Below, piece by piece: positions 29,315 through 48,750 of a DNA stretch of 64,000 nucleotides; position 1 is the first letter of the stretch; each line of letters opens with the position of its first letter. The stretch spans positions 2,728,001 through 2,792,000 of the forward strand of contig NZ_OY787469.1 of assembly GCF_963678835.1 (NCBI RefSeq), read 5' to 3'. The notes beneath the pieces are model-generated. The model was not told where the DNA came from and searched no databases. It saw only the letters and a list, made by a program, of their open reading frames with translations. Both the position numbers and the translations under genes were made by a program. This DNA comes from an uncultured Desulfuromonas sp. (lineage in GTDB: Bacteria > Desulfobacterota > Desulfuromonadia > Desulfuromonadales > Desulfuromonadaceae).

Positions 29315-30304
29315 GTGGAATCAGCACAGTGCGAAAAAAAAAATAAATATTTTTTTCCACCGCTACTTTTTCTCGGTGTGCTTTTCGGACTCATGCAGAT
29401 TTGTGCCGCTGAATGTGTGGCCCAAACCCAGATCAACACGATCCGCCTGGTGGAAACACGTCATGTTGATGACAATGAGCAGCCCTTGTCCTACCCGACA
29501 ACGATCGCCTATGACGCCACGCGTGACGAAATTATTGCCACGGATGCCGGCAAATCGCAGCTGGTTGTTTTTAATAACGAGTTGTTTCCTATCGCCAGTC
29601 TTGATCAGGGGCGCGGCATTATGGGGGTAACCAGTTGCCTGCCAACCAAAGAGGGACTTTACGTCACCTGCGGCAGCACAGAGGGTGGTGACGGCTACAT
29701 CGCTTTGGTCAACAAGGCGTTTATTATTGAAAAAAAAATTCGTCCGGCACAGCTCAACCCGCAATTGGGCAAGTTTACTGCAACACGGCTGATTGCAAAT
29801 ACGAACAATCGTTTCTACGTACTCAGTGTTGAGAGAAGCTCAGTCAGTGTTTTTGGTCAAAACTGGCTCTATCAACACGACATTATTCCCAAGGATGAAA
29901 AACTCGGCATTCCGGAACCCGCCTCGATTCAGGCGCTGGATTGTGACAATCAGGGGAATTTGTACTTTCTCAGTGAGGAGCGCGGCCGAGTGTTTGTGTA
30001 CGATCTGCACGAAAAGTTTCTCTATAAGTTTGGAGAAAAAGGCGGCGCAGAACGCAAGCTGGCGCGACCGCGAGGCATCAGCGTCGACAGCAAAAACCGC
30101 CGTCTGTACATCGTCGACTACCTGCGCCACACGGTTTCTTCCTACACCCTGGAGGGAGACTATCTGTTCGAGATCGGTGGCAAAGGCAATCGTCCCGGCT
30201 GGTTTCTCTACCCGACGGATGTCACCGTCGACATGGAAGGAAATATTTATATTACAGACACATTTAACCATCGTATTCAGGAGTTTTCAATTACGGCGCA
30301 ATAA
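29315..30304 (+). CDS. Exported NHL-repeat beta-propeller protein
   Basis: 329 residues. A hydrophobic signal segment (about 13-33) is followed by NHL-type blades; the clearest are GAERKLARPRGISVDSKNRR, LYIVDYLRHTV and GWFLYPTDVTVDMEGNIYITD. NHL propellers are protein-interaction platforms and commonly accompany multiheme cytochromes in this bacterial group. The start is a GTG at 29315 with AAGGAG 10 nt upstream. Codons 7-10 run through a stretch of ten A and are followed by a run of seven T, so this is a slippery region. It is the first gene of the main cytochrome series. Confidence 0.82.
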   Translation: MESAQCEKKNKYFFPPLLFLGVLFGLMQICAAECVAQTQINTIRLVETRHVDDNEQPLSYPTTIAYDATRDEIIATDAGKSQLVVFNNELFPIASLDQGRGIMGVTSCLPTKEGLYVTCGSTEGGDGYIALVNKAFIIEKKIRPAQLNPQLGKFTATRLIANTNNRFYVLSVERSSVSVFGQNWLYQHDIIPKDEKLGIPEPASIQALDCDNQGNLYFLSEERGRVFVYDLHEKFLYKFGEKGGAERKLARPRGISVDSKNRRLYIVDYLRHTVSSYTLEGDYLFEIGGKGNRPGWFLYPTDVTVDMEGNIYITDTFNHRIQEFSITAQ

Positions 30305-30376
30305 CGTTGACCGTAGTTTATCGCATTGTGTCAAGGATGTTGACACGCCATGAAATTCAACTTTCAGGAGGAAAAC

Positions 30377-31159
30377 ATGATGAGACGTGCCACAATCTTT
30401 GTGTTGAGTCTGACCCTGCTGTCGCTGACGACATCAGGAGCTTTGGCCGACCCACTCCCTTTGAGCACAGACGACTGTGCCAAATGTCACGACGAGGTCG
30501 TTACCGACGTCACAACACGAGGAAGCAAGCACAACACCGCCGTCACCTGTCTCGATTGCCACCTGGAGCATCCGCCCAAAGGAACGGACGTGATTCCGGC
30601 CTGCTCCATGTGCCATGATCCGGCGGAAAAAACCCACTACACCATTGACAACTGCATCGGCTGTCACCACCCGCACTACCCTCTTGAGATCGACCTTGAT
30701 AAAGCCGGTACCGTCAAACCGGTGTGTATCAGCTGTCATGAAAACGAGGGAACCCAGCTGGTTGAGTACCCCAGCATGCACAGTGAACTGGACTGTAAGG
30801 AATGCCACTTGGCCCATGGTCAGTTCCTGCCCTGTCTGGAGTGTCACGAGCCGCACACCGAAGAGATGATTTATGAGGATTGCATCACCTGTCACCAACC
30901 GCATAAGCCGACGGTCGTCAAGTACCCGGACAACATCCAATCAGCCTACTGTGCCGGTTGCCATGAGACGGAAACCGCCGTGCTGGCCCAAAACACCACC
31001 AAGCACCATGACTTAAGCTGCGCCTACTGCCATAAGATGCAGCACAAGATGGTACCGCTGTGCACCACCTGCCACGGCACACCGCATGATGCCGCTCTGC
31101 ACACGAAATTTCCGGACTGCATCAGTTGCCATATCGATCCACACGGCTTGGAGAAATAA
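30377..31159 (+). CDS. Exported dodecaheme cytochrome c (first of tandem pair)
   Basis: 260 residues with a Sec signal peptide (cut near ALA-DP) and twelve CxxCH motifs, about one heme per 19 residues, so almost the whole mature chain wraps hemes. The ATG at 30377 has AGGAGG upstream. It resembles the periplasmic dodecaheme partners of porin-cytochrome conduits. It is clearly related to the next gene (shared spacing and the motif YPSxHS.L.C..CH), pointing to tandem duplication. With the barrel gene at 32231 it could form a conduit through the outer membrane. Confidence 0.88.
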   Translation: MMRRATIFVLSLTLLSLTTSGALADPLPLSTDDCAKCHDEVVTDVTTRGSKHNTAVTCLDCHLEHPPKGTDVIPACSMCHDPAEKTHYTIDNCIGCHHPHYPLEIDLDKAGTVKPVCISCHENEGTQLVEYPSMHSELDCKECHLAHGQFLPCLECHEPHTEEMIYEDCITCHQPHKPTVVKYPDNIQSAYCAGCHETETAVLAQNTTKHHDLSCAYCHKMQHKMVPLCTTCHGTPHDAALHTKFPDCISCHIDPHGLEK

Positions 31160-31212
31160 TCCGGCGATAGACTGTTAACACCTATCTATCTGTTGTTATG
31201 AAGAGGAGACCC

Positions 31213-32094
31213 ATGAAACGAATCAAAAGACATCTCAGCGTATTTATCGCCGTCGCATTTATCGCCGGCATCTGGGGCTGCGTTGAACCAACCAACAGCT
31301 CTCTGGTGACCTCAGTCGCCCAGGCCAAGTCGCATGATAAAGAGGAGAAAAGTCCTTATGAGCAGGATGTGAAGCCTCTGACAACACTTGATTGTGCCCG
31401 TTGTCACTATTCCGTGTTTGAAATCATCCGCGACAATGGCGGCAAGCACCAGCTTGACTGCCAGTTCTGCCACGAAACATTCCACACCTATCGCCCGGAC
31501 AAGAATTGGAGCGACGTGGTCCCCCAATGCACCACCTGTCATGGCGAAATCCACGGCCCGACATTCCTTGACTGCCTGAGCTGTCATGGCAATGCCCATA
31601 TGCCGATTGCCGGTTTGACCAACATGGCAACCCTGGAAAAAGACTGCGCCAATTGCCATACGGCTCAGTCGGCTGAAGTCACCCAGTATCCCAGCGCTCA
31701 CAGCAAGGTGGCTTGCAGCGATTGCCACCACACCCAGCACGGCTACAAGCCCGATTGTGTGGAATGTCATGAGCAGCCTCACGCCGACTATGTGAACAAC
31801 GATTCCTGCGTGGGCTGCCATCCGGTCCATAAGCCGCTGGAAATTCGCTACACCGAAGAGACTCCCAATGGTGTCTGTGCGACCTGTCATGAAGAGATCA
31901 ATTCACGGTTGCTCAGTACCCACAAAAAGCACGCATCTTTACAGTGTGCCTATTGTCACCAGGAGACCCACGGTAACATTCCGCAATGCCAGGATTGCCA
32001 TGGTCTGCCGCACAGCAAGGGGATGCTCGACAAATTCAATGGCTGCACGGATTGCCACTTTGATCCACATGCACTGGTTCTCCCCGGCCATTAA
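31213..32094 (+). CDS. Dodecaheme cytochrome c, probable lipoprotein (second of pair)
   Basis: 293 residues with twelve CxxCH motifs. The signal sequence ends GIWGCVEP; Trp before Gly-Cys is unusual for a lipobox, but lipidation at that Cys is plausible. A charged tether (about 45-60) precedes the heme region. It is paralogous to the gene 53 bp upstream. The start at 31213 has AAGAGGAG upstream. Probable surface or periplasmic electron carrier paired with the downstream beta-barrel. A hairpin at 32127 separates it from that barrel gene. Confidence 0.87.
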   Translation: MKRIKRHLSVFIAVAFIAGIWGCVEPTNSSLVTSVAQAKSHDKEEKSPYEQDVKPLTTLDCARCHYSVFEIIRDNGGKHQLDCQFCHETFHTYRPDKNWSDVVPQCTTCHGEIHGPTFLDCLSCHGNAHMPIAGLTNMATLEKDCANCHTAQSAEVTQYPSAHSKVACSDCHHTQHGYKPDCVECHEQPHADYVNNDSCVGCHPVHKPLEIRYTEETPNGVCATCHEEINSRLLSTHKKHASLQCAYCHQETHGNIPQCQDCHGLPHSKGMLDKFNGCTDCHFDPHALVLPGH

Positions 32095-32126
32095 TGATGA
32101 TGGTGTCACATCTGTGGCACACGCCC

Positions 32127-32156
32127 TGCTCCGCCACCGCTCGCGGTGGCGGAGCA
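32127..32156 (+). terminator. Strong hairpin between cytochrome and barrel genes
   Basis: TGCTCCGCCACCG and CGGTGGCGGAGCA pair perfectly (13 bp) around a tetraloop. There is no long T run after it, so it may act as an attenuator or mRNA end stabiliser rather than a full stop. Confidence 0.6.
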
Positions 32157-32230
32157 CTGATGTTATTTCATGTGATTGAATCGACGGGTTACACCCTTTT
32201 TATCCCGATAACCCGGATGCTTGAATTCTT

Positions 32231-34270
32231 ATGTCGTTATTGCAGGGTATAAAAAAGATTGTCGCACCCTTGTCGCTGGTACTGCTGTTTGCCGTCGAAG
32301 CTGCGCCATCCCCATTGCATCTCACCGGCAACTGGAGCCAGCCCTATGGCGATGACAGTGACCAGTGGAAGTTGGGCCAGAGCTACAATCTGGATCTGAG
32401 CAATGATCTGACCTCCGCCCTGCGCGTTTCGGCCAACATGCGCTATACCACGAACAAAAAGAAAGATTCAGCAGACACGGAAACCCTGTCACCGTCGATT
32501 CTCATCGGCCTCAATAACGACCTGTTCAGCCTAAGTCTTAACGGCATGGAGAACCGCCGCAAGGTTGAAGATGAACCGACAACCATCAACCGGAGCTGGA
32601 GTACGACATTTATCAGCTCCCTTGATGAACGCTACTGGCCGCAACTGCGTCTCAACTACAGCCAGAACACAACAACGAATGATACCTCACCGAAAACGAG
32701 TGATCAGCAGTCGGATATTTTTGATTCGAGTTTTAAATACAAGTGGCGATTCCTGTCATTTCTCTACGATTTTTCCAACAGTATCGACACCAATAAAATT
32801 GAAGACACCGAGAATGAAAACACCAATCATTCCACACGTATTCAGTGGCAGGACACCTATTGGAACAACCGCTTGAGTGTCATTGCCTCGCACAAGTACA
32901 GCCACGACAAAAACACCATTACAGCCACATCAAACAGCAGTCAGATCAGCCGCCCGCTTCTGCCCAGTGCCGGGATCGCCAGCCTCGATGACACACCGTC
33001 AGACGATCCATTGGCGTCGGAACCGGCGTTGATCGACAATGACCTGTTTACGGCAACCAGCGTTGAGCTGCTGCAGCCGACGGAAACGGTCAATGTCGGG
33101 GTACAGATCAATCTGGAGAGCTTCAATGAGTTGATTTTTTATCTTGATCGCGAAATCGATGCGACAACGCAAAGCCGTTTGAGCTGGAGCTTTTATGGCA
33201 GCCTCAACAACGATGACTGGTCACCGGTCACCACACCTGCAACCATCATTTACTCGGTTGAGGACGGCCGCACTCTGGTCACTGTTGAATTTTCATCAGC
33301 GGTTGAAAACCTGCGCTATGTCAAGGCCGTTGTCACATCAACAGCGGGTGTCAGTACCGCCTTTATTACCGAAATCGATGTCAACCAACTGGTGACACTG
33401 GCACCGGGAGACAGCTCTTTGACCACGCTGACCCGCACTCATTTGAGCCAGGGCAGCATCAGTTTCAGACCATGGGATCAGTGGAATTTGGGCTATACCT
33501 TCAACCGCAACGACACCGATTCAGACAGTCGCGCACAATCGCTTCAGTTCAATCAGACACTCAACAGCGCCCTCAATCTCAACCGGTACTTTGCCCTGGC
33601 CATGAGTGTCACGGAAACCACCGATGACATCAAAGACCAGGACACCATCAAAAATCGCTCCTACGCCCTCTCCTATCGGGCCACGCCGCTTAACAGTTTG
33701 AGTTTCTCTCTGGGGGGAACACGTACGGAACATTTTATCGACAGCAGCCTCAACAGCCGCTCCGACACATTGAACAGCCATCTGTCAGCGACCCTGTTTC
33801 CCGACCTGACGGCCGGGCTGTCGACAAACTGGACCCGCAGTCAGGATAAAGAGAATAACGAGGAAACCACCAGTTGGGACTATCGGTTCGACATTGCCGC
33901 GCGTTTTACCGATTCGTTTAATCTGTCAGCCAGTTACACCTATCGCAACAATGATGACGGCAGCAGCGACAACAATTACGAAATCAACACCGTCTATCGA
34001 CCATCGACGTATATTTCGCTGACAACGGGCTATAAGCGCAACGACACAACAGATAATCTCTATTCAACACTGAATTTCCGCCTGACTCAAAAAATTCAGA
34101 CCGATTTTCGTTATGCCTATCTCAAGGCGGACACAACAGTACAATCGGCCAGTTTCAACCTGACCTGGAATGTAAGTACGATTTTAAATCTCCGCCAGAG
34201 TCTGGCCTGGGCGGATGAGGGAGAAGAACAGACCTGGTCCGGCTTGACGACTCTCAACTACAATTTCTGA
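32231..34270 (+). CDS. Outer-membrane beta-barrel with discoidin-like insert
   Basis: 679 residues. A signal peptide (about 1-25) is followed by repeated amphipathic strands ending in Tyr-Asn-Phe, the usual C-terminal strand of outer-membrane barrels. Strands such as LTSALRVSANMRYTT and FNLSASYTYRNN flank a segment at about 267-390 that looks like a beta-sandwich of the F5/8 type C (discoidin) kind: LQPTETVNVGVQINL, LSWSFYGSLNNDDW, VENLRYVKAVV. The barrel would be the pore of a porin-cytochrome conduit with the two dodecaheme proteins. There is no good Shine-Dalgarno before the ATG. Confidence 0.8.
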   Translation: MSLLQGIKKIVAPLSLVLLFAVEAAPSPLHLTGNWSQPYGDDSDQWKLGQSYNLDLSNDLTSALRVSANMRYTTNKKKDSADTETLSPSILIGLNNDLFSLSLNGMENRRKVEDEPTTINRSWSTTFISSLDERYWPQLRLNYSQNTTTNDTSPKTSDQQSDIFDSSFKYKWRFLSFLYDFSNSIDTNKIEDTENENTNHSTRIQWQDTYWNNRLSVIASHKYSHDKNTITATSNSSQISRPLLPSAGIASLDDTPSDDPLASEPALIDNDLFTATSVELLQPTETVNVGVQINLESFNELIFYLDREIDATTQSRLSWSFYGSLNNDDWSPVTTPATIIYSVEDGRTLVTVEFSSAVENLRYVKAVVTSTAGVSTAFITEIDVNQLVTLAPGDSSLTTLTRTHLSQGSISFRPWDQWNLGYTFNRNDTDSDSRAQSLQFNQTLNSALNLNRYFALAMSVTETTDDIKDQDTIKNRSYALSYRATPLNSLSFSLGGTRTEHFIDSSLNSRSDTLNSHLSATLFPDLTAGLSTNWTRSQDKENNEETTSWDYRFDIAARFTDSFNLSASYTYRNNDDGSSDNNYEINTVYRPSTYISLTTGYKRNDTTDNLYSTLNFRLTQKIQTDFRYAYLKADTTVQSASFNLTWNVSTILNLRQSLAWADEGEEQTWSGLTTLNYNF

Positions 34271-34326
34271 GGAACATTTATTGCATAAACCAACAAATGA
34301 CCCTGTTAAAACGAAGTGAGGTTAAC

Positions 34327-34896
34327 GTGAACGATGCCATTCGCCTGCTACTGATTGCCGTTCTGCTTTGTGCGGGATGCGCCCAAACCGGCCATCATTA
34401 CACCGACCCGGCGGTCGGCCTGGGCTATATCAAAAAAATTGCCATCCTGCCGCTGGAAAACTTCACGGCGCGCAAGGGCATTGAGGAACGAAGTCGCGAG
34501 CTGCTGACCACCCGCATTCTCGGCCACGGCCTGTATGAAGTTGTGGAAAAGGGGGAACTGCACCGTTTCCTGCGTGATGAGATCCGCTCCAACGAAAAAG
34601 AGCTGATCGACCAGCGTGTTGCCAAACGGATGGCACGCGAATTCAATATCGAAGCGTATATCGCCGGATCTGTGGATGAATTCACCGAGGTGCGCAATGG
34701 ATCTTATACCTACCCCGAAATTGCCATCAGTCTGCGTATGGTGGACATTAAGACCGGCAATGTGGTTTGGAAAGCAAGCCATCATGCTAACGGTTACAGT
34801 ACGGTCGGCCGTCTGCTCGGTTTGACCGCCGAAGATACCAACAGTGTCCTGTTTCGCCTGATTGATGATCTGTTGGCAACATTAAGCGAGAGTTGA
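34327..34896 (+). CDS. CsgG-like lipoprotein 1
   Basis: 189 residues from the GTG at 34327 (GAGG upstream), which puts the lipoprotein signal LLIAVLLCAGC at the N-terminus; an in-frame ATG at 34297 would add ten polar residues before it. The mature part resembles the CsgG/lipoprotein-NLPA-like alpha/beta fold: KKIAILPLENFTA, then RELLTTRILGHGLYEVVEKGE, FNIEAYIAGSVDEF and SLRMVDIKTGNVVWKASH. CsgG itself is the curli export pore. This chain is shorter and lacks clear pore strands, so it is more likely a periplasmic assembly lipoprotein. Confidence 0.75.
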   Translation: MNDAIRLLLIAVLLCAGCAQTGHHYTDPAVGLGYIKKIAILPLENFTARKGIEERSRELLTTRILGHGLYEVVEKGELHRFLRDEIRSNEKELIDQRVAKRMAREFNIEAYIAGSVDEFTEVRNGSYTYPEIAISLRMVDIKTGNVVWKASHHANGYSTVGRLLGLTAEDTNSVLFRLIDDLLATLSES

Positions 34897-36398
34897 TGAT
34901 GTTGAGAGCGTTTGTGTCCATCTGCTTTATCTGTCTGACCGTGAGCGTCCTGGTGGTGACGTCTGCATCGGCATATCGCCTTGCCGTGATGCCGATCCAC
35001 GATCTGACGGCATCGCGTAGCGGTTTGGACGTTACATTGACAAAACAGCTCTCGGACGTTTTTCAGCAACAGGGCCTTGATGTCATCCCCTACCACAAGA
35101 TGCTCACGTTTCTCGTTGACAACAGCATCCGTCGCAGTGGCGAGATCGATTCACTCACGGTGCGCCGTCTGGCCCAACAGCTTAACAGCGACGGTGTGTT
35201 GCTTACGACCATCACTGAACGCACCACTCAGCATCAGCCTAAAATCGCCATGACACTAGTGCTGGTCGATGGCCAAAGCGGCGAACAGGTTTGGGGCGCT
35301 ACAGTATGCGATCACATCAATGACAGTCAACCGCTGCTGGGAATCGGCCGATTGGAGAACGACGACGACCTCAAACACCATTCGTTGCGCTCCATCGCGG
35401 CCATGCTCAGTGCCAAAATTCCCGACATGCCGCAACGCGAAGCATCATTGCCCGACTACCGGATTACCGATATCGACCTTAAACCGGCGTTGGTGCGCAA
35501 CGGCAACCCGGTGTTCTGCCGAGTTCAGATTAAGTTTCTCAACCAGAGCCCCACCTATCTCGAAATGGAAACCAGCGCCGGCAGCACCATTTTGCGTAAA
35601 AGTCGAATCCCCAACTGTTATGAAGGACAGGTCGCAACCAGCCTACGAAACGGCAGCCACCCTGTTCATCTGAAGATTCACTGGTCCAAGGACAAGCTCG
35701 ATACCGTGGACACCCTGACTCGCTATCATGTGGCCAATACGCCGCCACCGCTGAAAATGCATGTCACCACCGGATTAAACATAGAAGAAACCTATGCCTT
35801 TTCCGACAGCGTGGTCATTCTGCCACGACTCGAAGAAGACCGCCCCCTGGACCGCTGGCAGTTAATGATCAAAGATCGTGAGGGAAAAACAATTCTCACT
35901 GAAGGCAAAAACGCATCATTGCCCGAACGCCTTGAATGGCGTGGCACGGATGCCTACAACCAACGCCTTGAAACCGGGCGCTACACCATGATCATGCAGG
36001 TCTGGGACGTTGCCGGAAACCGTAATCAGGTGGCCACAAAGTTTTATCTGCAACCCGCCAACCAGGACATGATCAATATCAGCCAGGTTCAAATCGACGG
36101 CAAAAATTATCTAAAACTGCGTCCAGCACAAGACCAACTGGTACCGGTCGAACAATGGTCGCTGGAGTTGGAAACGCCCGAGGGCAACTCCGTCTATAAC
36201 AAAACCGGCTGGGAGCTGCCATCACTGGTGGCAATTCCGGTCAATCTGGAGGCAGAGCGACTGATTTGCAGCGTGCAGGCTTTGGATCGTCTGGGCAACA
36301 ATGTCGAGATCAAAACCGCTCAGTTGGATCTGAGCAGCGCGCATGATCGAGTGGCGCAACGGCCGTCACAAAACCCCATCTGGTCTGCGGATTTTTGA
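34896..36398 (+). CDS. Exported protein, CsgG-like domain plus Ig-like repeats
   Basis: 500 residues, signal peptide about 1-25 (ASA). The N-terminal domain (about 28-185) follows the same pattern as its neighbours: YRLAVMPIHDLTA, LTKQLSDVFQQQGLDVIPY, LVDGQSGEQVWGA. The C-terminal two thirds are beta-rich; the segment near 350-385 (RLETGRYTMIMQVWDVAGN) resembles a FlgD-type Ig-like fold. Start at the ATG overlapping the previous stop (TGATGATG). The function is unknown. The context suggests a periplasmic scaffold for export or assembly of surface cytochromes. Confidence 0.72.
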   Translation: MMLRAFVSICFICLTVSVLVVTSASAYRLAVMPIHDLTASRSGLDVTLTKQLSDVFQQQGLDVIPYHKMLTFLVDNSIRRSGEIDSLTVRRLAQQLNSDGVLLTTITERTTQHQPKIAMTLVLVDGQSGEQVWGATVCDHINDSQPLLGIGRLENDDDLKHHSLRSIAAMLSAKIPDMPQREASLPDYRITDIDLKPALVRNGNPVFCRVQIKFLNQSPTYLEMETSAGSTILRKSRIPNCYEGQVATSLRNGSHPVHLKIHWSKDKLDTVDTLTRYHVANTPPPLKMHVTTGLNIEETYAFSDSVVILPRLEEDRPLDRWQLMIKDREGKTILTEGKNASLPERLEWRGTDAYNQRLETGRYTMIMQVWDVAGNRNQVATKFYLQPANQDMINISQVQIDGKNYLKLRPAQDQLVPVEQWSLELETPEGNSVYNKTGWELPSLVAIPVNLEAERLICSVQALDRLGNNVEIKTAQLDLSSAHDRVAQRPSQNPIWSADF

Positions 36399-36399: not shown

Positions 36400-37002
36400 A
36401 TGGTGCGTCTATTTGTTCTTGCCCTACTCTGCAGCTTATTAACCGCCTGCGCCGGAAAACCACCGACAACGACGGAAGTTCCCGGCCAGCATAAATCAGC
36501 CGGATTTTGCCGGATTACCGTGCTGCCTTTTGCCAACGATACCGATGAACCAAGACTGGGGTTGATCGCCGAAAAGATCTGTCAGACCGAGCTGTTACAG
36601 CGTGAAGCTCAAGTAGTTAATGAAGCGGATGTCCGTCTTTTTCTACACAAGCGACAGGTCTTCACCTCCGAGTTGACTCAACACGGCAGCACAGAACTGT
36701 ATGCCGCCTTTGCCAAAGAGCTTAAAACGCAAGGGATCATCCGCGGTCGAATTCTCACGCTGGATGAAGAGAAAAAACAGGGCGAAATTGTTCCTGTCAT
36801 CACCCTGCAACTGGAATTGATCAATGCCATGGATGGGCAATTAATTGTCAGTTCTTTTCTGCGTCGCAGCGGTGAAGATTATCGCACCATTCTTCATTAC
36901 GGTGTCATTCGCACCCGTAGCGAATTGATCCGGCAGATCATTGCCGAAATTTTTAACGACTGGATAGCGCGAGGAGTTGTGAGTTGTCAAAAATCTGCCT
37001 GA
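36400..37002 (+). CDS. CsgG-like lipoprotein 2
   Basis: 200 residues from the ATG at 36400, one base after the previous stop. The lipoprotein signal has lipobox LLTAC. The mature part repeats the family plan: RITVLPFANDTDEPRLG, CQTELLQREAQVVNEADV, ELKTQGIIRGRIL and TLQLELINAMDGQLIVSS. It is distantly related to the lipoprotein at 34327. The end overlaps the next gene by 19 bp, so the group 34327-38603 is tightly coupled. Confidence 0.74.
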   Translation: MVRLFVLALLCSLLTACAGKPPTTTEVPGQHKSAGFCRITVLPFANDTDEPRLGLIAEKICQTELLQREAQVVNEADVRLFLHKRQVFTSELTQHGSTELYAAFAKELKTQGIIRGRILTLDEEKKQGEIVPVITLQLELINAMDGQLIVSSFLRRSGEDYRTILHYGVIRTRSELIRQIIAEIFNDWIARGVVSCQKSA

Positions 37003-38603
37003 AAATCTGCCTGACCACCCTGATCTGTCTGTTATGGATGGGGAGCGCAAGCCATGCCCTGTTCTGGCAGGATCCACCGCTTGTCACCATCAATGACCAA
37101 TCCTGGAATCGTCAAGACTTCCTCAACTGGTGGCCGGAATGGAAAGAGCCGGGCATGGAACAACCGCAAAGTCCGGATGACTTCATCGACTGGATACTTC
37201 TCTCTGATGAAGCGGAGCAGATGCAGCTGTATGATGAACCGCGTTTCAAGCAAAAAGTGCATACCTTCTTGAAGGTTCGCTCACTGATGATGCTAAAAAA
37301 TGAGGAAGTGGATGAAAAAATCTCCGTCAGTGATGAGGAGATCGATCGCATCTATCACCGTGATTATACACCGTTGCTCAAATTACGTTCCATTGAACTG
37401 GACAGCGAGAAACAATGCGCTGCGTTTATGCAGGCGGTCAGTCAAGGATTATCCAGCGACGAGGTTCTCAGCGATCCGGCGTTAAAACTGCCGCAAACAG
37501 GCTTATCTGAACCGATTGTTCAACGCCCCAACCAGTTACCACCGCATGTTCGCACCTTGTACGAACAAGACCCACAAACCCGTTACCTGCCGGCTTACAG
37601 TTATCAGGATCGTTGGTTTATTCTCGAGATTATGCAACGTGACCCAGGCAATGACAATGATCGGGCCAATGTCGCTGAATCCATCATCTATAAACTGCGT
37701 AAAGACAAACAACGTGAGCTGACCGGGCAGCTCAATCTGCGTTTAATGGAAAAGTATCAGGTCCAGATGGACGAGGAAGGGATGAAACGGATCCATGAAG
37801 ACGGCCCGGAAGAGGATGTCGCCGAGGCGGCCATGATTACGTTTCCTGATTTCACCATCACCGGACAGATTCTCTACAAAAACGCGCTGAGTCACTATCA
37901 GCGTTTCGGCGGCAAAGAGATGAAAGACACCTCGTTTGAGGAGATTGTCCAGCGCGTTGCCAACGATATTGTGGCTCAATCGCTCACCAGCAAGGAAGCG
38001 CTCAATCGCCACTACGAGTCAAAGCCGCCTTTTCAGTCGGTGTACTTTTTTTACCAGCGCCATCGCCTGATCCGGGAACTGGAAAACAAACTGATCCTGC
38101 CCTACACCGAGGTCAGTGACGAGGAGCTGACACGTTATTACAACGAACATCGTGACGACTATGCCTATCCGGTGCGAGTTCGCTACGTCAGCGTGGAAAC
38201 GCGCAACGAAAAAATGGCCCTGAAATTGCGTGAAGATTTGCGTCAAGGCGCTGATTTTTATCAGACCTTATCACCGTTATCCCCCGCAGGCATTGAAACG
38301 AAAACAACACCGCTGGCCCATCTTATCCCGGAAATGCAGGACTTAATTGACCGTTTACAGCCGGGGCAAGCCGACATGTTAGAGGTGGATGGCTACTTCC
38401 ACTTTATCCGCTTAATTGAGGAACCTAAGGTGGATTACAAGCCATTTGACCAGATCCGCGATGTCTTGAAAGCGCAGCTGACACAGGCGAAGTTCACAGA
38501 ACGCCGCGCTGATCTGATTGCGCAACTGCGCCAACGCACGACAATTACCGTGAATCAAAATCAATGGCAACGCTGTCTCAATGAACTCAACAAGGGGCAA
38601 TAA
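36984..38603 (+). CDS. PpiC/SurA-type peptidyl-prolyl isomerase
   Basis: 539 residues. A signal peptide (about 1-26) is followed by helical SurA-like chaperone segments (about 60-130, 290-370) and a parvulin-like region (about 380-490) with YAYPVRVRYVSVETRN, LREDLRQGADFYQTL and PGQADMLEVDGYFHFIRL. Likely a periplasmic folding factor. The start is a TTG at 36984 with GAGGAG seven bases upstream, inside the end of the previous gene. Isomerase genes of this type accompany extracellular cytochromes in Geobacter, which suggests a role in folding or secreting them. Confidence 0.83.
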   Translation: MSKICLKICLTTLICLLWMGSASHALFWQDPPLVTINDQSWNRQDFLNWWPEWKEPGMEQPQSPDDFIDWILLSDEAEQMQLYDEPRFKQKVHTFLKVRSLMMLKNEEVDEKISVSDEEIDRIYHRDYTPLLKLRSIELDSEKQCAAFMQAVSQGLSSDEVLSDPALKLPQTGLSEPIVQRPNQLPPHVRTLYEQDPQTRYLPAYSYQDRWFILEIMQRDPGNDNDRANVAESIIYKLRKDKQRELTGQLNLRLMEKYQVQMDEEGMKRIHEDGPEEDVAEAAMITFPDFTITGQILYKNALSHYQRFGGKEMKDTSFEEIVQRVANDIVAQSLTSKEALNRHYESKPPFQSVYFFYQRHRLIRELENKLILPYTEVSDEELTRYYNEHRDDYAYPVRVRYVSVETRNEKMALKLREDLRQGADFYQTLSPLSPAGIETKTTPLAHLIPEMQDLIDRLQPGQADMLEVDGYFHFIRLIEEPKVDYKPFDQIRDVLKAQLTQAKFTERRADLIAQLRQRTTITVNQNQWQRCLNELNKGQ

Positions 38604-40538: not shown

Positions 40539-41719
40539 TGAATTATCGCAGTTGGATTATGTTGTCGCTGCTTCCAGCCCTGGTTTTGGTCAGTGTGAGT
40601 AACTCATTCGCTGCCTCGCACTGTTTCCAATGCCACGACCCAGCCCTTTTTAACGGTAAGGTAACCCATGCACCGGTCGCCAAAAACAAATGTGACCAGT
40701 GCCATAATCCACATCTGGCCAAATTTGACGGTCTGTTGCTCAAACAGGGCAGCCAGCTGTGCTTTCAATGTCACGATACCTTTGAGGCCAACGTTTTTCG
40801 CAAAAAAGTTGTTCATCAACCGGTCGCCGAGGGGCAATGCAGTGCCTGTCATGAACCACACGCTTCGGCAACATCGGGCCTGTTAAAACGCTCCATGTCC
40901 GAGTTGTGTCTGACCTGTCATAACGATATTGACGAGCAACCGGGTAAAAGCCACCCACCGTTTGCCAAAGGGCAATGCGCCACCTGTCATTTGCCCCACT
41001 CCGGTGATCGGCGCGCCCTGCTTAAAGCGGATAACAGCGCGGTGTGTTTGAGCTGTCATCAATCGAGCCCGGCATTGCGCCGTCAACACCTTAACCGCTC
41101 GTTGGACGGTGTCGACTGTCTGGAATGTCACCAGCCCCACAAATCGCAACAGGTCAGCCTGCTGCGGGAGAACCTCCATCAACCGTTTGCTGAGGGCAAG
41201 TGTCAGAGTTGTCACTCGCGCAACAACGACCTGAGTTTGTGTCTGAGCTGTCATGAACAGATTCTGACGTCGTTCAACCACCAATTCAGCCACCGGGTGG
41301 TCGGCTCTCAAACCAATGGATGTTTCAATTGCCACAGTCCCCATGCCAGTCGTCAACAGGGGTTGATCAAACAGGCACCGGGCCAGGCATGTCGCCAATG
41401 TCACGCAGGAAAATTTGAGCGCCGCGCCACAAGCCTTTATGTGCATCCTGAGGCCAACAACTGTGTGACCTGTCATCAGCTGCACGGCTCCGATCTGCCG
41501 GCCATGCGCAAAAAAGATAACGACTCGGCCTGTGTTGACTGCCATGAGCGTCACAGCAATTTCAGCCATCCGATGGGGGATAAAGCGCGTGATCCCCGTA
41601 ATGGCCAACCGATGAATTGTATCTCCTGTCATGATCCCTGTAACGGCACGATGTTTAAGTACAACCTCAGGGGAACCAGCGATAAGGGTTTGTGTATCCT
41701 GTGTCATGCCGGATATTAG
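40538..41719 (+). CDS. Exported 16-heme cytochrome c
   Basis: 393 residues, signal peptide about 1-25 (SFA-AS), 16 CxxCH motifs in the same doubled-CxxCH pattern as its upstream neighbour, with linkers such as HQPVAEGQC and LLKQGSQLC. It looks like a shorter relative of the 26-heme protein. The last hemes (CISCH, CILCH) sit in a less regular C-terminal segment. Predicted periplasmic or surface electron carrier working with the 26-heme protein. It is followed 10 bp later by an NHL gene. Confidence 0.9.
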   Translation: MNYRSWIMLSLLPALVLVSVSNSFAASHCFQCHDPALFNGKVTHAPVAKNKCDQCHNPHLAKFDGLLLKQGSQLCFQCHDTFEANVFRKKVVHQPVAEGQCSACHEPHASATSGLLKRSMSELCLTCHNDIDEQPGKSHPPFAKGQCATCHLPHSGDRRALLKADNSAVCLSCHQSSPALRRQHLNRSLDGVDCLECHQPHKSQQVSLLRENLHQPFAEGKCQSCHSRNNDLSLCLSCHEQILTSFNHQFSHRVVGSQTNGCFNCHSPHASRQQGLIKQAPGQACRQCHAGKFERRATSLYVHPEANNCVTCHQLHGSDLPAMRKKDNDSACVDCHERHSNFSHPMGDKARDPRNGQPMNCISCHDPCNGTMFKYNLRGTSDKGLCILCHAGY

Positions 41720-42693: not shown

Positions 42694-43806
42694 ATGATGA
42701 TGTCAGCCAATCGAAGAATAAAAGCAGTTGAACAGGTGACAACGAGAAGAGTCCACGCCCTTTCCGGTCTCATCGCGGTTTTTTTGTGCCTGTTCGCAAC
42801 GATGACACACGCGAAGGTCACCGGTCCCTGCTCCAACTGCCACACCATGCACAACAGTCAGAACAACAGTCTGGTCAACAGTTCCGGACCAAACCATTCT
42901 CTGCTGGTCAACGACTGTGTCGGTTGTCATACCGGTGCCAACAGCCAAGGCGGCTCCACCCCCTTCGTTCACAACACCGGCACGGTTGATTACAACACCT
43001 CCGGCATTGAGGGAGATACGCTGGCTGGCGGCACATTCAAATATGTGGCAACCAGTGACTACAAAGGACACAACGTTGCAGGCATTGCTAATCCCGATCT
43101 GACCTTGTCGGCCCCTCCTGGATTTGATGGCGGACGCCCGGCGGCCGATGCTACCACCCCAGGTGGCGGCCTGTGGTCAAACCAGCAGATCACCTGTGCC
43201 GGCACCTACGGTTGTCACGGCAACCATGCCACGACCGACCCGTATCAGGCGATTTACGGCGGACATCACAAGAACAGGCAGGGCACGGCGATCACAGCGC
43301 CGGGGACGGCACCTGAAGATGGCTACCGGCTGCTGGTCGGCATTGCCGGGTATGAAGATCCTGAGTGGGAATTTACACCAACTGCCGCGCTGCATAATCA
43401 GTACAAAGGGGTGGATGATGCCGGTCAGTACAGTGACACATCGACCATCAGTTATTTTTGCTCGCAATGTCACGGTCAGTACCACAATCCATCAGCGAAT
43501 TTGAGCACCGGGGGCGGCTCCCCCTGGCTGCGCCATCCGACAGATTACGACATGGGCAATACCGACCTTGATTCCGAATACCGCAACTATGGCGACATCG
43601 GCAATTCCTATTTGCCCGCCACACCGCTGGCCAGTGCTTCGGTGGCCAGTGTGAAAAGTACTGTGACCTTTGCCGATGACACCATCGTCAACTGCCTATC
43701 CTGCCACCGTGCTCACGGCTCCAATTATTATAAAGCCATGCGCTGGGGCTATGCTGAAAGCAATGATGGCGGGTTATGCTCCAACTGTCATACCAGTAAG
43801 GATTAA
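42694..43806 (+). CDS. OmcS-like multiheme cytochrome, candidate nanowire subunit
   Basis: About 370 residues; ATG codons at 42694, 42697 and 42700 compete, none with a good Shine-Dalgarno. Signal about 20-45 (THA-KV). Five canonical motifs: CSNCH followed by TMHNSQ, CVGCH, CSQCH, CLSCHRAH, and CSNCH four residues from the end. At the place of a third heme is CAGTYGCH, a CX5CH variant (Cys168, Cys174, His175). The order and the flanks TMHNS, CLSCHRAH and a C-terminal CxxCH...KD match Geobacter OmcS, a six-heme filament-forming cytochrome, as I recall it. Related to the gene at 47665. Confidence 0.85.
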   Translation: MMMSANRRIKAVEQVTTRRVHALSGLIAVFLCLFATMTHAKVTGPCSNCHTMHNSQNNSLVNSSGPNHSLLVNDCVGCHTGANSQGGSTPFVHNTGTVDYNTSGIEGDTLAGGTFKYVATSDYKGHNVAGIANPDLTLSAPPGFDGGRPAADATTPGGGLWSNQQITCAGTYGCHGNHATTDPYQAIYGGHHKNRQGTAITAPGTAPEDGYRLLVGIAGYEDPEWEFTPTAALHNQYKGVDDAGQYSDTSTISYFCSQCHGQYHNPSANLSTGGGSPWLRHPTDYDMGNTDLDSEYRNYGDIGNSYLPATPLASASVASVKSTVTFADDTIVNCLSCHRAHGSNYYKAMRWGYAESNDGGLCSNCHTSKD

Positions 43807-43855
43807 ACCGGCCAGGGACAATATGTGTAACTCTTGCAGATTTAATGGAAATTCC

Positions 43856-45244
43856 ATGAACTATTTTCGATGGCGAAATCTGATCCCAACGGTTCTGGCT
43901 GTGATATTTCTGGCAGCGTGTCAACCGTTAGGCGTTGAAACTCCGGCCCAACGCCGTTCTGCAACGGACAGCATGGTGTCGGTGTACCTCAATTACACAT
44001 CTAAACCGGATTTCCGCCTTGAAATTCAGGACCTGGAGTTTCGAACCAAAGAGATCTGGCTGCCCTGCCGTGGCAATGCTTCTGACACCAGACGTTCCAG
44101 TCGCCAACACCTGATTGCGTTGGATGCTCTTCCGGCAGCACAGTACGATCAAATCCGGTTTCGCGTTGAACTCTATTCCGAGCAGAACACGCTCCTGCGC
44201 ACGGAGCAGGTCTCTCTGGGCATCCCCAACCATTTACGTCTCAAACCATCGGGGAGCCAGTGTCTGTTTTTACACTGTCGATTGTCCCCGTACACGCTTG
44301 ACCGCCCACTTCCGGAGCAATTTGTTGTTGAAAATCAGGTCGCACCGTTGGCGGACAATCTGCTTTACGCCCTGTGCCCTGACCTGTCAACGGTTTATAT
44401 CATCCGCACCGACCAATTTACCGTCACCGCCGCCTACCCGCTCCAGGGACAAATCAGCGACATGGTGGTCGATAACGACCGGCGACTGATCTATTTTCTC
44501 GACCGTCAACGCCAGCAGATTCAACGCTGGGACGGTATCTCACAACAGATGACCGACCGCATTCCCTTGCCCATGACGCAAAGCCCTGAGGGGCTGGAGA
44601 TCTCCCCGGACGGGGAATTTTTATTCGTCACCGATACCGTCAACCGTCAATTGCTCAAAATTGACGCTGAGAACGGGACCCGGTTGGCTCAAGTCAACAT
44701 CGGTCATGAACCATCGCAGCCCTACTGGTTCGAGCACAATGGTCAGGCACGCTTGGCGGTAATCTCTCTTGGCGACCAACAACTGCATCTGGTCAGTGCC
44801 GACAGCCTGGCCACCATTGCTGAAGTGACGGCAGGACAACAACCGTATGAAACCCTGTATGCCAACAATGCCCTGTTTGTCAGCGACAGTTTCGACTATC
44901 AGATCCTGCAACTGGATCCCGACAGTGGCGTTCTTCAGGCGCGCATTCCCACCATGGGCCGCCCCATGGCCATGCTTGATGACACCATTCAACGCAATGT
45001 CATCATTGCTGAACAAGCCCGCTCAGGGCTGGCGTTACTGCCCTACGGGCAACAGTTGATTGCCCGGCACATTGCGGCAGGTGCGGCACCCCACGATCTG
45101 GCCATCTCCAACAAACGCCGTCTGCTGTACATTGCTGATGAAATCAACCATTCGATTGTTGTCCTTGATTTGCCATCGGAAAAAATCATCCAGACAATAG
45201 AAGTCGGGTCAACCCCGGATGTCATCATGGTTCAGGAGCCTTGA
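43856..45244 (+). CDS. Beta-propeller lipoprotein (YVTN type)
   Basis: 462 residues with an excellent lipobox (VIFLAACQ). The N-terminal domain (about 30-150) is beta-rich and unrecognised. From about 165 on come repeated YVTN/quinoprotein-like propeller blades: SDMVVDNDRRLIYFLDR, LEISPDGEFLFVTDTVN, DLAISNKRRLLYIADEIN and IIQTIEVGSTPDVIM. Probably anchored to the outer membrane and used as a binding platform near the OmcS-like cytochrome. An alternative ATG at 43823 has a fair AGGGA upstream but would put eleven extra residues before the signal. Confidence 0.8.
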   Translation: MNYFRWRNLIPTVLAVIFLAACQPLGVETPAQRRSATDSMVSVYLNYTSKPDFRLEIQDLEFRTKEIWLPCRGNASDTRRSSRQHLIALDALPAAQYDQIRFRVELYSEQNTLLRTEQVSLGIPNHLRLKPSGSQCLFLHCRLSPYTLDRPLPEQFVVENQVAPLADNLLYALCPDLSTVYIIRTDQFTVTAAYPLQGQISDMVVDNDRRLIYFLDRQRQQIQRWDGISQQMTDRIPLPMTQSPEGLEISPDGEFLFVTDTVNRQLLKIDAENGTRLAQVNIGHEPSQPYWFEHNGQARLAVISLGDQQLHLVSADSLATIAEVTAGQQPYETLYANNALFVSDSFDYQILQLDPDSGVLQARIPTMGRPMAMLDDTIQRNVIIAEQARSGLALLPYGQQLIARHIAAGAAPHDLAISNKRRLLYIADEINHSIVVLDLPSEKIIQTIEVGSTPDVIMVQEP

Positions 45245-45246
45245 AC

Positions 45247-46467
45247 ATGCACGACCTGCTCAAACAATTTTATGTCATCGTTGTGTCGGTACTCTGCCTG
45301 TTGTTGCTGACAGCACTGACCTGTCAGGCCAATGATGCGCTATGCCTCGACTGTCATGACGAGATTAAACAGGTCATCGACGAAAGTTATTATGTTCACG
45401 AACCGGTACGTGCCTACAAATGTCGCGTCTGTCATGCCCGCGACGCATTTGAACCATCAATACCGGTATCGCAGCCGGAGCCGAACAATAATTATGTGCT
45501 GGCCTACCAGCAAACCACCCCCCATGAGGAACAACCAATCACCTGGCTGGTGGAAAATTTCACGCCGGCTCTTCATCAATCGGCCCTGATCAAGCAACGC
45601 AAACTCAAAGATCGCCTGATCCTCGATCTCTGGTATCAACAGGCGGGGAAAAAAAACTATCAGTTCGACACTCCCAGCCTGAAGACATTGGAAACGCAAA
45701 CGCCCCGCTACCAGATGCTTGACATCGACAACCTGTATCTCACCGATTTCGATACCCGTTTGGTGCCGCGTGCCACCCTGCACTGGAACACCAATGAACC
45801 AAGCCGATGTACGACAAGTTACGGGAACAACACTCTGGATGTGGTGTATGAAGAAGACGATCTGTACCTTTATGACCATCACCTTGATCTGCGTAATTTC
45901 ACCGAGGGGGGCTATGTGGTGGAGATCACATGTCGTGACCCCTATCGACGTGTGAAAACCACCGAGCGGTTCAACCTCCTGACATTACCGGTTCGTGAAC
46001 AACAGATTGTCGCCCCCGCGGTCGATGAAGACCGGATCACCCTGAAGAACCTCCAGGGTAAATTGTGGATCGAAGTAGAATCACACCAGCCAGCCAGTTT
46101 GTCGGTTGGTGTTCAGAACGTCGGCAATAGCCAACAAGCGGTGGAAGCACCACTGTCACAAGCCGTCAAAGACACCAACGCTCTTGATGGTGAAAGCTCA
46201 GAAGACGAACATATCACTTTAAATACACTGCTTTATACGACCACCCAGGTCTGCCACAAATGCCACACCGGCCTGGAATCTGGACAATCGCATCCGGTCA
46301 ATGTGCTGCCGCCGTTGAATATGATTGTTCCCCCGGAATACAAACGTCTTAAAGATGGCAAAATCAGTTGCATGACCTGCCATACGGCGCATGGCAGTAA
46401 CACCGAACATCGACTGATCAAGAAATCCCCCAAAGCTCTGTGTACGGGATGTCATACAAATTATTAA
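45247..46467 (+). CDS. Exported pentaheme cytochrome with non-heme middle domain
   Basis: 406 residues, signal peptide about 1-28. Two CxxCH motifs lie at the N-terminus (CLDCH, CRVCH) and three at the C-terminus (CHKCH, CMTCH, CTGCH). The 230-residue middle is heme-free and beta-rich (RATLHWNTNEPSRCTTSYGN, YVVEITCRDPYRRV), like fibronectin type III/Ig folds. This splits the hemes into two clusters separated by a rigid spacer. AGGAG lies upstream of the ATG at 45247, just after the propeller lipoprotein stop. Confidence 0.85.
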   Translation: MHDLLKQFYVIVVSVLCLLLLTALTCQANDALCLDCHDEIKQVIDESYYVHEPVRAYKCRVCHARDAFEPSIPVSQPEPNNNYVLAYQQTTPHEEQPITWLVENFTPALHQSALIKQRKLKDRLILDLWYQQAGKKNYQFDTPSLKTLETQTPRYQMLDIDNLYLTDFDTRLVPRATLHWNTNEPSRCTTSYGNNTLDVVYEEDDLYLYDHHLDLRNFTEGGYVVEITCRDPYRRVKTTERFNLLTLPVREQQIVAPAVDEDRITLKNLQGKLWIEVESHQPASLSVGVQNVGNSQQAVEAPLSQAVKDTNALDGESSEDEHITLNTLLYTTTQVCHKCHTGLESGQSHPVNVLPPLNMIVPPEYKRLKDGKISCMTCHTAHGSNTEHRLIKKSPKALCTGCHTNY

Positions 46468-46512
46468 ACGATTTTGCAGTATTACTGACCATAACAGAAC
46501 GAGGAATCCTCC

Positions 46513-47067
46513 ATGACTGCTGAAAAATTCAAACGCAAACTGGTCAACCTGAATGTGAAACGTCGCTTGCAGCTCTGGTTGCTGATCCGCATCGGCGGCA
46601 TCATCATTCTGACCTCCATCATTTCCGCATTGATCCTCTACGGCTATGCTCGGCACGAAACCATCAACACCTTCTATCAGGCGCACATTAAAATTCGCCG
46701 TGTCAGTGATCTGCTGTTACCGGTTGTGCTGTCCGGGTCAGCGATCAGTCTGATCAGCGGAGCGCTGCTGGCGTTATTTCTGCCACAAAAAATTGCCGGA
46801 CCGCTTTACCGCATCGAACAAGAACTTACCAAGGTTAAGGCTGGAGATTTTCGAACTAAAATCAAACTGCGGACCAAAGACACCCTGGTTAATTTCGCCA
46901 GTGAAATCAACGACACCATCGCAACCGTGGATCATCGTTTAAGTGACATGCAAAAAGCCATAAACAGTCTTGACGACAATGAAATACTCCCACAGGACAC
47001 ACGTGAAAAAATTGACGAGGTCAAACGGTTGCTCAATGACTGCAAAACCACACTGAACAATCACTGA
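46513..47067 (+). CDS. HAMP-only membrane protein
   Basis: 184 residues. Two TM helices (about 22-45 and 68-92) bracket a short periplasmic loop of about 25 residues. A HAMP-like region (about 93-145: PQKIAGPLYRIEQELTKVKA, GDFRTKIKLRTKD) and a terminal coiled coil follow. There is no kinase, cyclase or methyl-accepting domain. GAGGAAT precedes the ATG. It ends the co-directional cytochrome series. It may pass a signal to, or modulate, another membrane protein. Confidence 0.75.
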   Translation: MTAEKFKRKLVNLNVKRRLQLWLLIRIGGIIILTSIISALILYGYARHETINTFYQAHIKIRRVSDLLLPVVLSGSAISLISGALLALFLPQKIAGPLYRIEQELTKVKAGDFRTKIKLRTKDTLVNFASEINDTIATVDHRLSDMQKAINSLDDNEILPQDTREKIDEVKRLLNDCKTTLNNH

Positions 47068-47494: not shown

Positions 47495-47518
47495 CGCTGG
47501 CATGAACACGTTAAATGG

Positions 47519-47552
47519 GTGTTATTGCTCACCCCATAGGGGCAGATAACAC
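47519..47552 (+). promoter_or_regulatory. Leader hairpin upstream of the OmcS-like gene
   Basis: GTGTTAT (47519-47525) pairs with ATAACAC (47546-47552), and within it CCCC-ATA-GGGG forms an inner stem. It lies 112 nt before the start codon, in a leader that is long for this window. I could not match it to a known riboswitch; the conserved core of the GEMM c-di-GMP class is not visible. Confidence 0.45.
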
Positions 47553-47664
47553 ATGTGCGTCAAACAGCGACACAAAAGCATAAGCATAGCATATTGGAAA
47601 TGAAAGAAAGATCGTTCTAGGCAATATTAGACACAAACTGCCACAACACTTCAGGAGGGGAAAA

Positions 47665-48750
47665 ATGAAAACTTCACGGCTTGGTTTGCTACTCATCGTC
47701 ACACTGGTTCTTTGGAGTTCCAGTGCTCTGGCGAGCGTCAGCGGTTCCTGTGCCAACTGTCATACCATGCACGCCACTGACGGTGCCGGCAATACTCTTG
47801 CCGGTGGCGCCAAAGGTTCTTTGACCATCGGCGGCTGCGTCGGTTGTCATACTGGTGATAATGAAGCGGCGGACGGTGCGTCTGCCGGTGCCGGCGGTGT
47901 TCCTTACGTGATGGACACGGCTGCACCAACGTACGGTCCGGAATACTCCGGTGGTTCGTTGGTTGCCAACACCAACACACTGGCAGGCGGAAGCTTCTGG
48001 TGGGTTGGTAAATCTGCTGGAAACGATGCGACTAAAGGGCACAACGTAACAACAGACGACCTGTGTGATTTTGACATGGACGCTCCGGGTCGCCGCGACG
48101 GTGACCAAGTTGCATTCACCTCGGGTGCCCCCCTGACCTGTGCCGGTACCATGGGCTGCCACGGTGACCGCAGCGTCGATGGCGACTATGCCAGTATCAG
48201 CGGTGCTCATCACGGATCATCGTCAACAACAGTTGACGACAGCTTCCGCTTCCTCGACGGTATTGCCGGCACTGAAGCCCCAGACTGGGAGTACGCCGCA
48301 GCCATTAACAACCACAACAGCTATAAAGCTCAAGCACGCAGTGAAGCGTCCTCCATGGCCGACGGTGGTGACACCATCAGCTCCCTGTGTGGTCAATGCC
48401 ATGGCGATTTCCACAGCGGCACCGACACGGTATCCGATGGCAGTGCTTGGTTGCGTCACCCGACCGACATCGTTCTTCCGACTGGTGAATATGCGTCCTA
48501 CGCGTCTATCCCGGACGAATCCGGTATCTACAACATCATCGCCCCGGTTGGCGTCGCCACCCCTGTTGCCGCAACAGAGGATGTGACCCTGGCCAACTCT
48601 GTTGTTACCTGCATCTCCTGCCATCGCGCACACGGTTCTCCATATGCCGACCTGCTGCGTTGGGACTATGCCAACATCAGCGCCGGTTCTCCCATCGGTG
48701 GTGTTGACAACAACGGCTGCTTCGCCTGCCATACCAGCAAGGATGGTTAG
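47665..48750 (+). CDS. Stand-alone OmcS-like multiheme cytochrome, candidate nanowire subunit
   Basis: 361 residues, signal peptide about 1-24 (ALA-SV), strong AGGAGGGG before the ATG. Motifs in order: CANCH followed by TMHAT, CVGCH, then CAGTMGCH (CX5CH; Cys159, Cys165, His166), CGQCH, CISCHRAHG, and CFACHTSKDG at the very end. This is the plan of the gene at 42694, and I recall the same flanks in Geobacter OmcS. The chain is rich in Gly, Ala, Ser and Thr with few charges. Its own promoter, long leader and clean terminator suggest high expression, as expected for a filament subunit. Confidence 0.87.
   Translation: MKTSRLGLLLIVTLVLWSSSALASVSGSCANCHTMHATDGAGNTLAGGAKGSLTIGGCVGCHTGDNEAADGASAGAGGVPYVMDTAAPTYGPEYSGGSLVANTNTLAGGSFWWVGKSAGNDATKGHNVTTDDLCDFDMDAPGRRDGDQVAFTSGAPLTCAGTMGCHGDRSVDGDYASISGAHHGSSSTTVDDSFRFLDGIAGTEAPDWEYAAAINNHNSYKAQARSEASSMADGGDTISSLCGQCHGDFHSGTDTVSDGSAWLRHPTDIVLPTGEYASYASIPDESGIYNIIAPVGVATPVAATEDVTLANSVVTCISCHRAHGSPYADLLRWDYANISAGSPIGGVDNNGCFACHTSKDG

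What the first reader, a model, noticed from the sequence alone, without database searches (positions are those of the whole stretch)
29315..48750. Contiguous locus that may build, export and wire a cytochrome nanowire
Seen: fourteen co-directional genes, 29315-47067, with tight spacing, encoding two NHL propellers, six multiheme cytochromes (12, 12, 26, 16, 6-type and 5 hemes), a beta-barrel, CsgG-like lipoproteins, an isomerase, a lipoprotein propeller and a HAMP protein, then a stand-alone OmcS-like gene. Known: OmcS-type hexaheme cytochromes polymerise into filaments in Geobacter. Inference: the whole set, not just the filament subunit, is one assembly and export system. How such filaments cross the outer membrane is still poorly understood, so the non-heme genes are the interesting part.
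Basis: partly seen in the sequence, partly recalled or inferred. Interest (0 to 1): 0.78.

Follow-up and report, generated by a model that had tools for sequence, protein, structure and literature searches.

The report
Osc-type cytochrome nanowire assembly locus
A run of sixteen genes in a Desulfuromonas-group bacterium includes the core of a gene set already published from Geobacter for making electricity-carrying protein filaments; here it likely folds, exports and wires such a filament, and its outer-membrane barrel is predicted to resemble one that elsewhere houses an electron wire.

Summary
In detail: fifteen (not fourteen) tightly packed co-directional genes plus a solitary OmcS-family gene at 47665. 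Barrel and isomerase co-occur in 67 of 271 class genomes (2+2 alone, 200 neither). 30 of 33 loci found by the isomerase alone carry an OmcS-family gene. New details: the 'CsgG-like' proteins match PelC, the lipoprotein of Pel export, best among solved structures; the barrel models with 28 strands and matches MtrB, an electron-conduit porin, best; OmcS-family proteins outside Geobacter-type loci carry CX5CH instead of CXXCH at heme site 3 (54 of 63, against 0 of 26); the 26- and 16-heme proteins are fused into one 42-heme protein in 4 of 25 loci. What looks like one barrel has two published roles, filament export and electron conduit, and this is testable. Filament formation here is unproven.

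The parts
29315..30304 (+). NHL1, six-bladed propeller, signal peptide (similar NHL gene lies near OmcS in several Geobacter-type loci)
   Evidence: Pfam NHL 9.3e-18; same place in relatives
30350..31159 (+). C12a, 12-heme cytochrome, secreted; accessory
   Evidence: 12 CXXCH; weak DmsE/MtrA-family similarity 3e-8, 33 against a cut-off of 192 bits
31198..32094 (+). C12b, 12-heme cytochrome, imperfect lipobox (IWGC); accessory
   Evidence: 12 CXXCH; TIGR03508 1e-8, below cut-off; lipobox regex met by 2 of 9 family members
32231..34270 (+). BARREL, inferred OscE (published OetI probably the same protein): predicted 28-strand outer-membrane barrel with an inserted beta domain about 238-389
   Evidence: AlphaFold2 pLDDT 87, pTM 0.64; best match MtrB 6r2q_B; F5/8C hits in 2 of 19 family members
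34297..34896 (+). Csg1, inferred OscF: PelC/LpoB-like lipoprotein
   Evidence: lipobox Cys invariant in 17 of 17; PelC 5t11 2.1e-9
34893..36398 (+). Csg2Ig: PelC/CsgG-like domain plus Ig-like tail, signal peptide without lipobox; corresponds to N half of Geobacter-type OscG
   Evidence: FlgD_ig 0.0011, below cut-off; domain mapping
36400..37002 (+). Csg3: PelC-like lipoprotein (LTAC lipobox; start inferred); corresponds to C half of Geobacter-type OscG
   Evidence: PelC 9h80 8.4e-6; lipobox Cys invariant in 16 of 16; domain mapping
36984..38603 (+). PPI, inferred OscH: large PpiC-type peptidyl-prolyl isomerase
   Evidence: Rotamase_2 6.5e-13; PrsA structure 4.7e-11
38604..40538 (+). C26, OscI: 26-heme cytochrome, possible lipoprotein (own lipobox SYGC is imperfect)
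   Evidence: 26 CXXCH; 26 hemes at the same place in Geobacter-type loci; GSU2495 26 heme = oscI; lipobox regex met by 25 of 32 family members
40538..41719 (+). C16, OscJ: 16-heme cytochrome
   Evidence: 16 CXXCH; fused to C26 as 42-heme protein in L067, L079, L083, L084
41775..42671 (+). NHL2, inferred GSU2493 equivalent: NHL propeller (start inferred)
   Evidence: NHL 2e-9; follows C16 in relatives
42694..43806 (+). OmcS1: OmcS-family putative filament subunit, 5 CXXCH + CX5CH (start inferred)
43856..45244 (+). PROP, OscD equivalent: propeller lipoprotein (start inferred, LAAC lipobox)
   Evidence: YNCE 4.4e-7; its family precedes the barrel in Geobacter-type loci
45241..46467 (+). C5: 5-heme cytochrome with non-heme middle part; accessory
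   Evidence: 5 CXXCH; present in only part of the copies
46513..47067 (+). HAMP-like membrane protein, two hydrophobic stretches seen by eye; accessory
   Evidence: read from sequence; no Pfam HAMP hit
47665..48750 (+). OmcS2: solitary OmcS-family putative filament subunit, 5 CXXCH + CX5CH

Best explanation
This is a Desulfuromonadales version of the published osc (omcS companion) locus, which likely folds, exports and electrically connects filaments of OmcS-family cytochromes. Inferred steps: (1) OmcS1 and OmcS2 are exported by Sec, heme-loaded, and folded with help from the OscH-type isomerase. (2) Three PelC-like domains (OscF equivalent plus a split OscG) probably form a lipoprotein ring under the outer membrane that feeds the OscE-type barrel. 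(3) That barrel, predicted to have 28 strands and to be most like MtrB, is the outer-membrane crossing point; whether filament, electrons or both cross it is not shown. (4) The 26-heme and 16-heme proteins likely act as one 42-heme wire linking periplasmic carriers to the filament base; the 12-heme pair is a clade-specific extra. (5) The propeller PROP steers filament morphology, as reported for OscD in Geobacter. Shown here: gene content, synteny, family membership and predicted folds. Not shown: polymerisation, export, electron flow.
Against: No filament has been seen from this organism in anything I read. Foldseek alone found no significant match for the OmcS1 model; single-sequence phmmer missed OmcS. 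Heme site 3 is CX5CH, whose heme attachment is untested. L064 carries OscH and an OmcS-family gene without the rest; L076 lacks the barrel. 5 of 50 genomes with Geobacter-type OmcS showed neither barrel nor OscH; searched 271 of the 277 genomes, so some of the five may not have been searched. 14 of 69 OscH genomes were not seen to hold an OmcS-family gene, but window-type OmcS was sought in only 40 genomes. The 2017 paper says these cytochromes are not expressed in metal respiration in several species, and OmcS is reported as not needed for Fe(III) oxide reduction (abstract start; passage). The osc letters of single genes were inferred from three stated locus tags, and no G. sulfurreducens sequence was in hand.
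Confidence: 0.8

Rival explanations
1. The locus is mainly a porin-cytochrome electron conduit (oet type): the barrel sheathes a multiheme wire as MtrB sheathes MtrA, the 26-/16-heme and 12-heme proteins pass electrons through it, and the OmcS-like proteins are soluble or surface terminal cytochromes rather than exported filaments; PelC-like proteins and isomerase only help assemble the conduit.
Confidence: 0.3
2. Two neighbouring operons with separate jobs: a conduit (29315-34270) and an osc block (34297-47067), brought together by chance or by co-expression.
For: 136 bp gap before the barrel; no 12-heme gene between propeller and barrel in the Geobacter-type copies.
Against: The barrel travels with the PelC-like genes, not with the 12-heme genes: 21 of 23 named loci with enough upstream sequence keep it, and it lies directly before OscF in all 11 Geobacter-type genomes fetched.
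Confidence: 0.1
3. The exported cargo is not the OmcS-like protein but something else (for example a polysaccharide, as PelC suggests), and the cytochromes merely ride along.
For: PelC is the closest solved relative of the lipoproteins; an F5/8C-like domain, a type often sugar-binding (recalled), is inserted in the barrel of some relatives.
Against: No glycosyltransferase or synthase recognised among the sixteen genes; OmcS-family genes in 30 of 33 loci.
Confidence: 0.05

Closest known systems
osc (omcS companion) operon of Geobacter sulfurreducens, including GSU2501-GSU2493 (Shen et al. 2025, not held; cited in PMC12977616 and PMC13194489)
   Same: Same core: propeller lipoprotein (OscD), barrel, PelC-like OscF, OscG, OscH isomerase, 26-heme OscI, 16-heme OscJ, NHL protein, OmcS-family genes; compared through relatives with Geobacter-type OmcS, not with G. 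sulfurreducens itself
   Different: Window: OscG split in two with an Ig tail on the first; propeller and OmcS genes moved downstream; extra 12-heme pair, 5-heme and HAMP-like genes; CX5CH instead of CXXCH at heme site 3; OscH only 15-18% identical to the Geobacter-type ones
Conserved operon of seep sulfate reducers (Skennerton et al. 2017, PMC5539420) and oetABI cassette (Murali et al. 2023, PMC10553843)
   Same: 16-heme and 26-heme cytochromes, isomerase, six-bladed propeller; barrel; OmcS-like genes; overlapping taxa (Desulfuromonadales, Geobacterales, Desulfobulbia, Thermodesulfobacteria)
   Different: The barrel is read there as an electron porin, not an exporter; I could not compare OetI sequences directly
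PelBC, outer-membrane exporter of Pel polysaccharide
   Same: PelC-like lipoproteins beside a barrel gene
   Different: Cargo; the barrel model aligns to PelB over only 240 residues, and PelB's barrel has fewer strands (recalled); here three paralogous PelC-like domains instead of one
MtrCAB / porin-cytochrome complexes
   Same: Large barrel next to multiheme cytochromes; MtrB is the best structural match
   Different: 28 modelled strands with an inserted domain; no clear MtrA above the family cut-off
OmcS nanowire subunit (6ef8)
   Same: Fold; CHTMH, GHN, RHP and SCHRAH motifs
   Different: Heme site 3 is CX5CH; CX2-5CH motifs are already printed for DA_402 of Desulfurivibrio (PMC12545173, legend)

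Membership tests
osc nanowire assembly locus | OmcS-family gene(s) in the block | tested here: met
   OmcS1, OmcS2; family profile to 6ef8 2.5e-26
osc nanowire assembly locus | barrel, OscF, OscG, OscH, 26-heme, 16-heme, NHL genes in this order | tested here: met
   against Geobacter-type loci; OscG split in two
osc nanowire assembly locus | OscD-type propeller lipoprotein in the block | tested here: met
   PROP profile hits the propeller in front of the barrel in Geobacter-type loci; in the window it lies downstream of OmcS1 instead, an arrangement that I do not treat as defining
osc nanowire assembly locus | needed for OmcS filament secretion | not testable with these tools
   reported for Geobacter in papers citing Shen et al. 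2025
OmcS filament subunit | OmcS fold | tested here: met
OmcS filament subunit | six CXXCH hemes | tested here: not met
   five CXXCH and one CX5CH; so filed as OmcS-family, not as OmcS
OmcS filament subunit | histidine for ligation between subunits (His16 of OmcS, role recalled) | tested here: met
   CHTMH histidine invariant in 25 of 25, aligned with OmcS; ligation itself not modelled
OmcS filament subunit | polymerises | not testable with these tools
   no oligomer modelling or microscopy
CsgG curli channel | CsgG family cut-off reached by the window protein 34297 | tested here: not met
   16.6 against cut-off 20.8 bits; no CsgG chain among PDB hits at E<=1; but 13 of 17 family members match CsgG at E<=0.01, best 2.8e-9
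PelC | sequence similarity to PelC structures | tested here: met
   5t11 2.1e-9, 9h80 1.2e-5; 9h80 8.4e-6
PelC | twelve-membered ring around PelB | not testable with these tools
   12 PelC chains in entries 5t11 and 9h80; no ring modelled here
MtrB-type porin | large barrel fold | tested here: inconclusive
OetI | sequence match to OetI | not tested
   OetI sequence not in hand; cassette content and taxa agree

The most novel reading that the evidence does not exclude
OscE and OetI are one protein with both published jobs: an MtrB-like, 28-strand barrel wide enough (about 4 nm if circular) for an OmcS-type filament, fed from below by a ring of three paralogous PelC-like domains (four sets of three would rebuild PelC's twelve), so the nanowire is extruded through the gate and stays plugged in it, with the 26+16-heme (fusible to 42-heme) wire as its periplasmic contact. 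Export gate and electrical socket are the same hole.
Probability: 0.18. Interest if true: 0.8.

Novelty: new variant of a known kind. Interest (0 to 1): 0.45.

Why it matters
Two literatures describe what looks like one locus with different roles for its barrel: secretion channel (osc) and electron porin (oet). Putting them together, with PelC-like lipoproteins, an MtrB-like barrel and a natural 42-heme fusion, makes the question of how cytochrome filaments cross the outer membrane and are plugged in directly testable, by separating export from electron flow in mutants. The CX5CH heme site marks a large OmcS-family group outside Geobacter-type loci, for which I met no filament structure.

Tried and rejected
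Riboswitch control: the only Rfam match at gathering thresholds in the window is a tRNA. Sigma-54 promoters: 8 sites at up to one mismatch, 8.5 expected. Single-sequence phmmer of OmcS2 to OmcS: no hit; a profile was needed. Foldseek of the OmcS1 model: nothing significant. CsgG-type pore for the lipoproteins: set aside in favour of PelC, though relatives do score as CsgG superfamily. Fusion survey at phylum level: 46 of 395 genomes matched at E<=1e-100, nearly all of the listed matches over the 26-heme part only; one match (G425, query 315-1020, open frame 1084 aa) may be another fusion and was not followed. L068, labelled Heimdallarchaeota, carries a Thermodesulfobacteria-like copy and I take it as a binning error (inference). 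Literature: Shen et al. 2025 is not held, so its content is known only through citing papers. No paper in the library holds 'CX5CH' together with 'heme', and none of the 10 papers listed holds '42 heme', '42-heme' or '42 haem'; but PMC12545173 prints 'CX2-5CH'.

Counting: I dropped ORFs without CxxCHxxH or GHN, ORFs under 250 aa and identical copies before counting 89 proteins; the window's own copies are not among them, and paralogues away from the clusters are. The tallies (30 of 33; 21 of 23 with 4.9 kb or more upstream; 4 fused of 25 with both cytochromes visible) are my reading of that table. The two-domain make-up of Geobacter-type OscG was tested on 4 of 11 genomes. The OmcS1 model begins 18 bases before the inferred start.

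Full report
What is there. Searches confirm fifteen co-directional genes between 29315 and 47067 and an OmcS-family gene at 47665-48750. With adjusted starts the gaps are -19 to +136 bp, then 597 bp. Heme motif counts are 12, 12, 26, 16, 5 and 5, and 5 in the last gene. Both OmcS-like proteins carry one further site, CAGTYGCH or CAGTMGCH (CX5CH).

Conservation. Of 40 genomes (own genome and relatives), 17 match OmcS2 at E<=0.001. I fetched 20 stretches; the four complete same-genus copies have all 16 genes in the same order. A profile of the isomerase found 33 named loci, titled as Desulfuromonadales, Thermodesulfobacteria, Desulfobulbaceae, Desulfurivibrionaceae, Nitrospirae, or only as Deltaproteobacteria or Proteobacteria. 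There, 30 of 33 carry an OmcS-family ORF (L066 a partial one, L064 without the rest of the block), and the barrel is present in 21 of the 23 loci with enough upstream sequence; L064 and L076 lack it. In 271 genomes of the class the barrel (E<=1e-25) and the isomerase (E<=1e-45) each occur in 69, together in 67, with 200 having neither. 66 of 76 isomerase hits have the barrel 1.8-5.0 kb upstream on the same strand; the other ten have no barrel on that contig. The genomes are related and the cut-offs were set, so the Fisher p value (1.4e-58) overstates the case. Within the genus the locus is patchy: 5 of 9 sampled same-genus genomes have the isomerase.

Identity with osc. Loci with Geobacter-type OmcS (50 of 277 genomes at E<=1e-30; best 73% identical) were fetched for 11 genomes, one of them (G114) nearer to the window by kinship. 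All 11 show propeller, barrel, PelC-like protein, a 364-433 aa protein, isomerase and 26-heme cytochrome in that order, followed by the 16-heme (15 motifs in L128) and NHL genes. In the 4 genomes tested, the 364-433 aa protein holds two PelC/CsgG-like domains. Published locus tags fit: GSU2501 oscC, GSU2495 oscI (26 heme), GSU2494 oscJ; the other letters follow by counting. The papers I read (passages and one section of PMC12977616; passages of PMC13194489) report, citing Shen et al. 2025, an eight-gene block linked to nanowire maturation and secretion, with OscH in folding, OscE, OscF and OscG in secretion and OscD in morphology. Shen et al. itself is not held. The same operon core was described in 2017 (passages of PMC5539420), and as the oet cassette in 2023 (one section and passages of PMC10553843), whose reference 33 is the 2017 paper.

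The wire. In L067, L079, L083 and L084 the 26-heme and 16-heme proteins are one ORF with 42 CXXCH and regular spacing through the joint; separate homologues align to its two halves. L083 and L084 look like near relatives. The N termini show lipobox-like ends, and 25 of 32 members of the 26-heme family meet a lipobox regex; the window's own box is imperfect. This suggests that the two proteins of the window act as one wire.

Judgement. The locus belongs to a known kind of system, in a clade-specific form. What is new is in the details, and in the fact that what looks like one barrel has been given two roles under two names. Those roles can be separated by experiment.

Noticed in passing
L067:2520-5558, L079:11610-14675, L083:11500-14619, L084:852-3956: 26-heme and 16-heme cytochromes fused into single 42-heme ORFs with lipobox-like N termini
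   Followed up: yes
window 26057-27364 +: 8-heme cytochrome with MtrC/MtrF-like domain hit (4.4e-15) just upstream of the locus
   Followed up: no
window 27453-28865 -: NtrC-family response regulator (read from sequence) facing away from the locus; possible regulator, but no sigma-54 site enrichment in the window
   Followed up: partly
window 48823-49977 and 50065-52206 +: PAS-GGDEF protein and a sensor histidine kinase directly after OmcS2 (read from sequence)
   Followed up: no
L038:13310, L055:16437, L062:17199, L063:15114, L068:6223, L081:17221: An 8-heme cytochrome of 434-589 aa sits between OmcS1 and the propeller in these relatives but not in the window
   Followed up: no
L068: Locus labelled Heimdallarchaeota with a Thermodesulfobacteria-like copy; probably a binning error
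   Followed up: no
G000:C1:3346068-3347096: A third OmcS-family paralogue in the genome, away from the locus, with six CXXCH plus a CX3CH motif
   Followed up: partly
window 4340-11071 +: Open frame of 2243 aa, not examined
   Followed up: no
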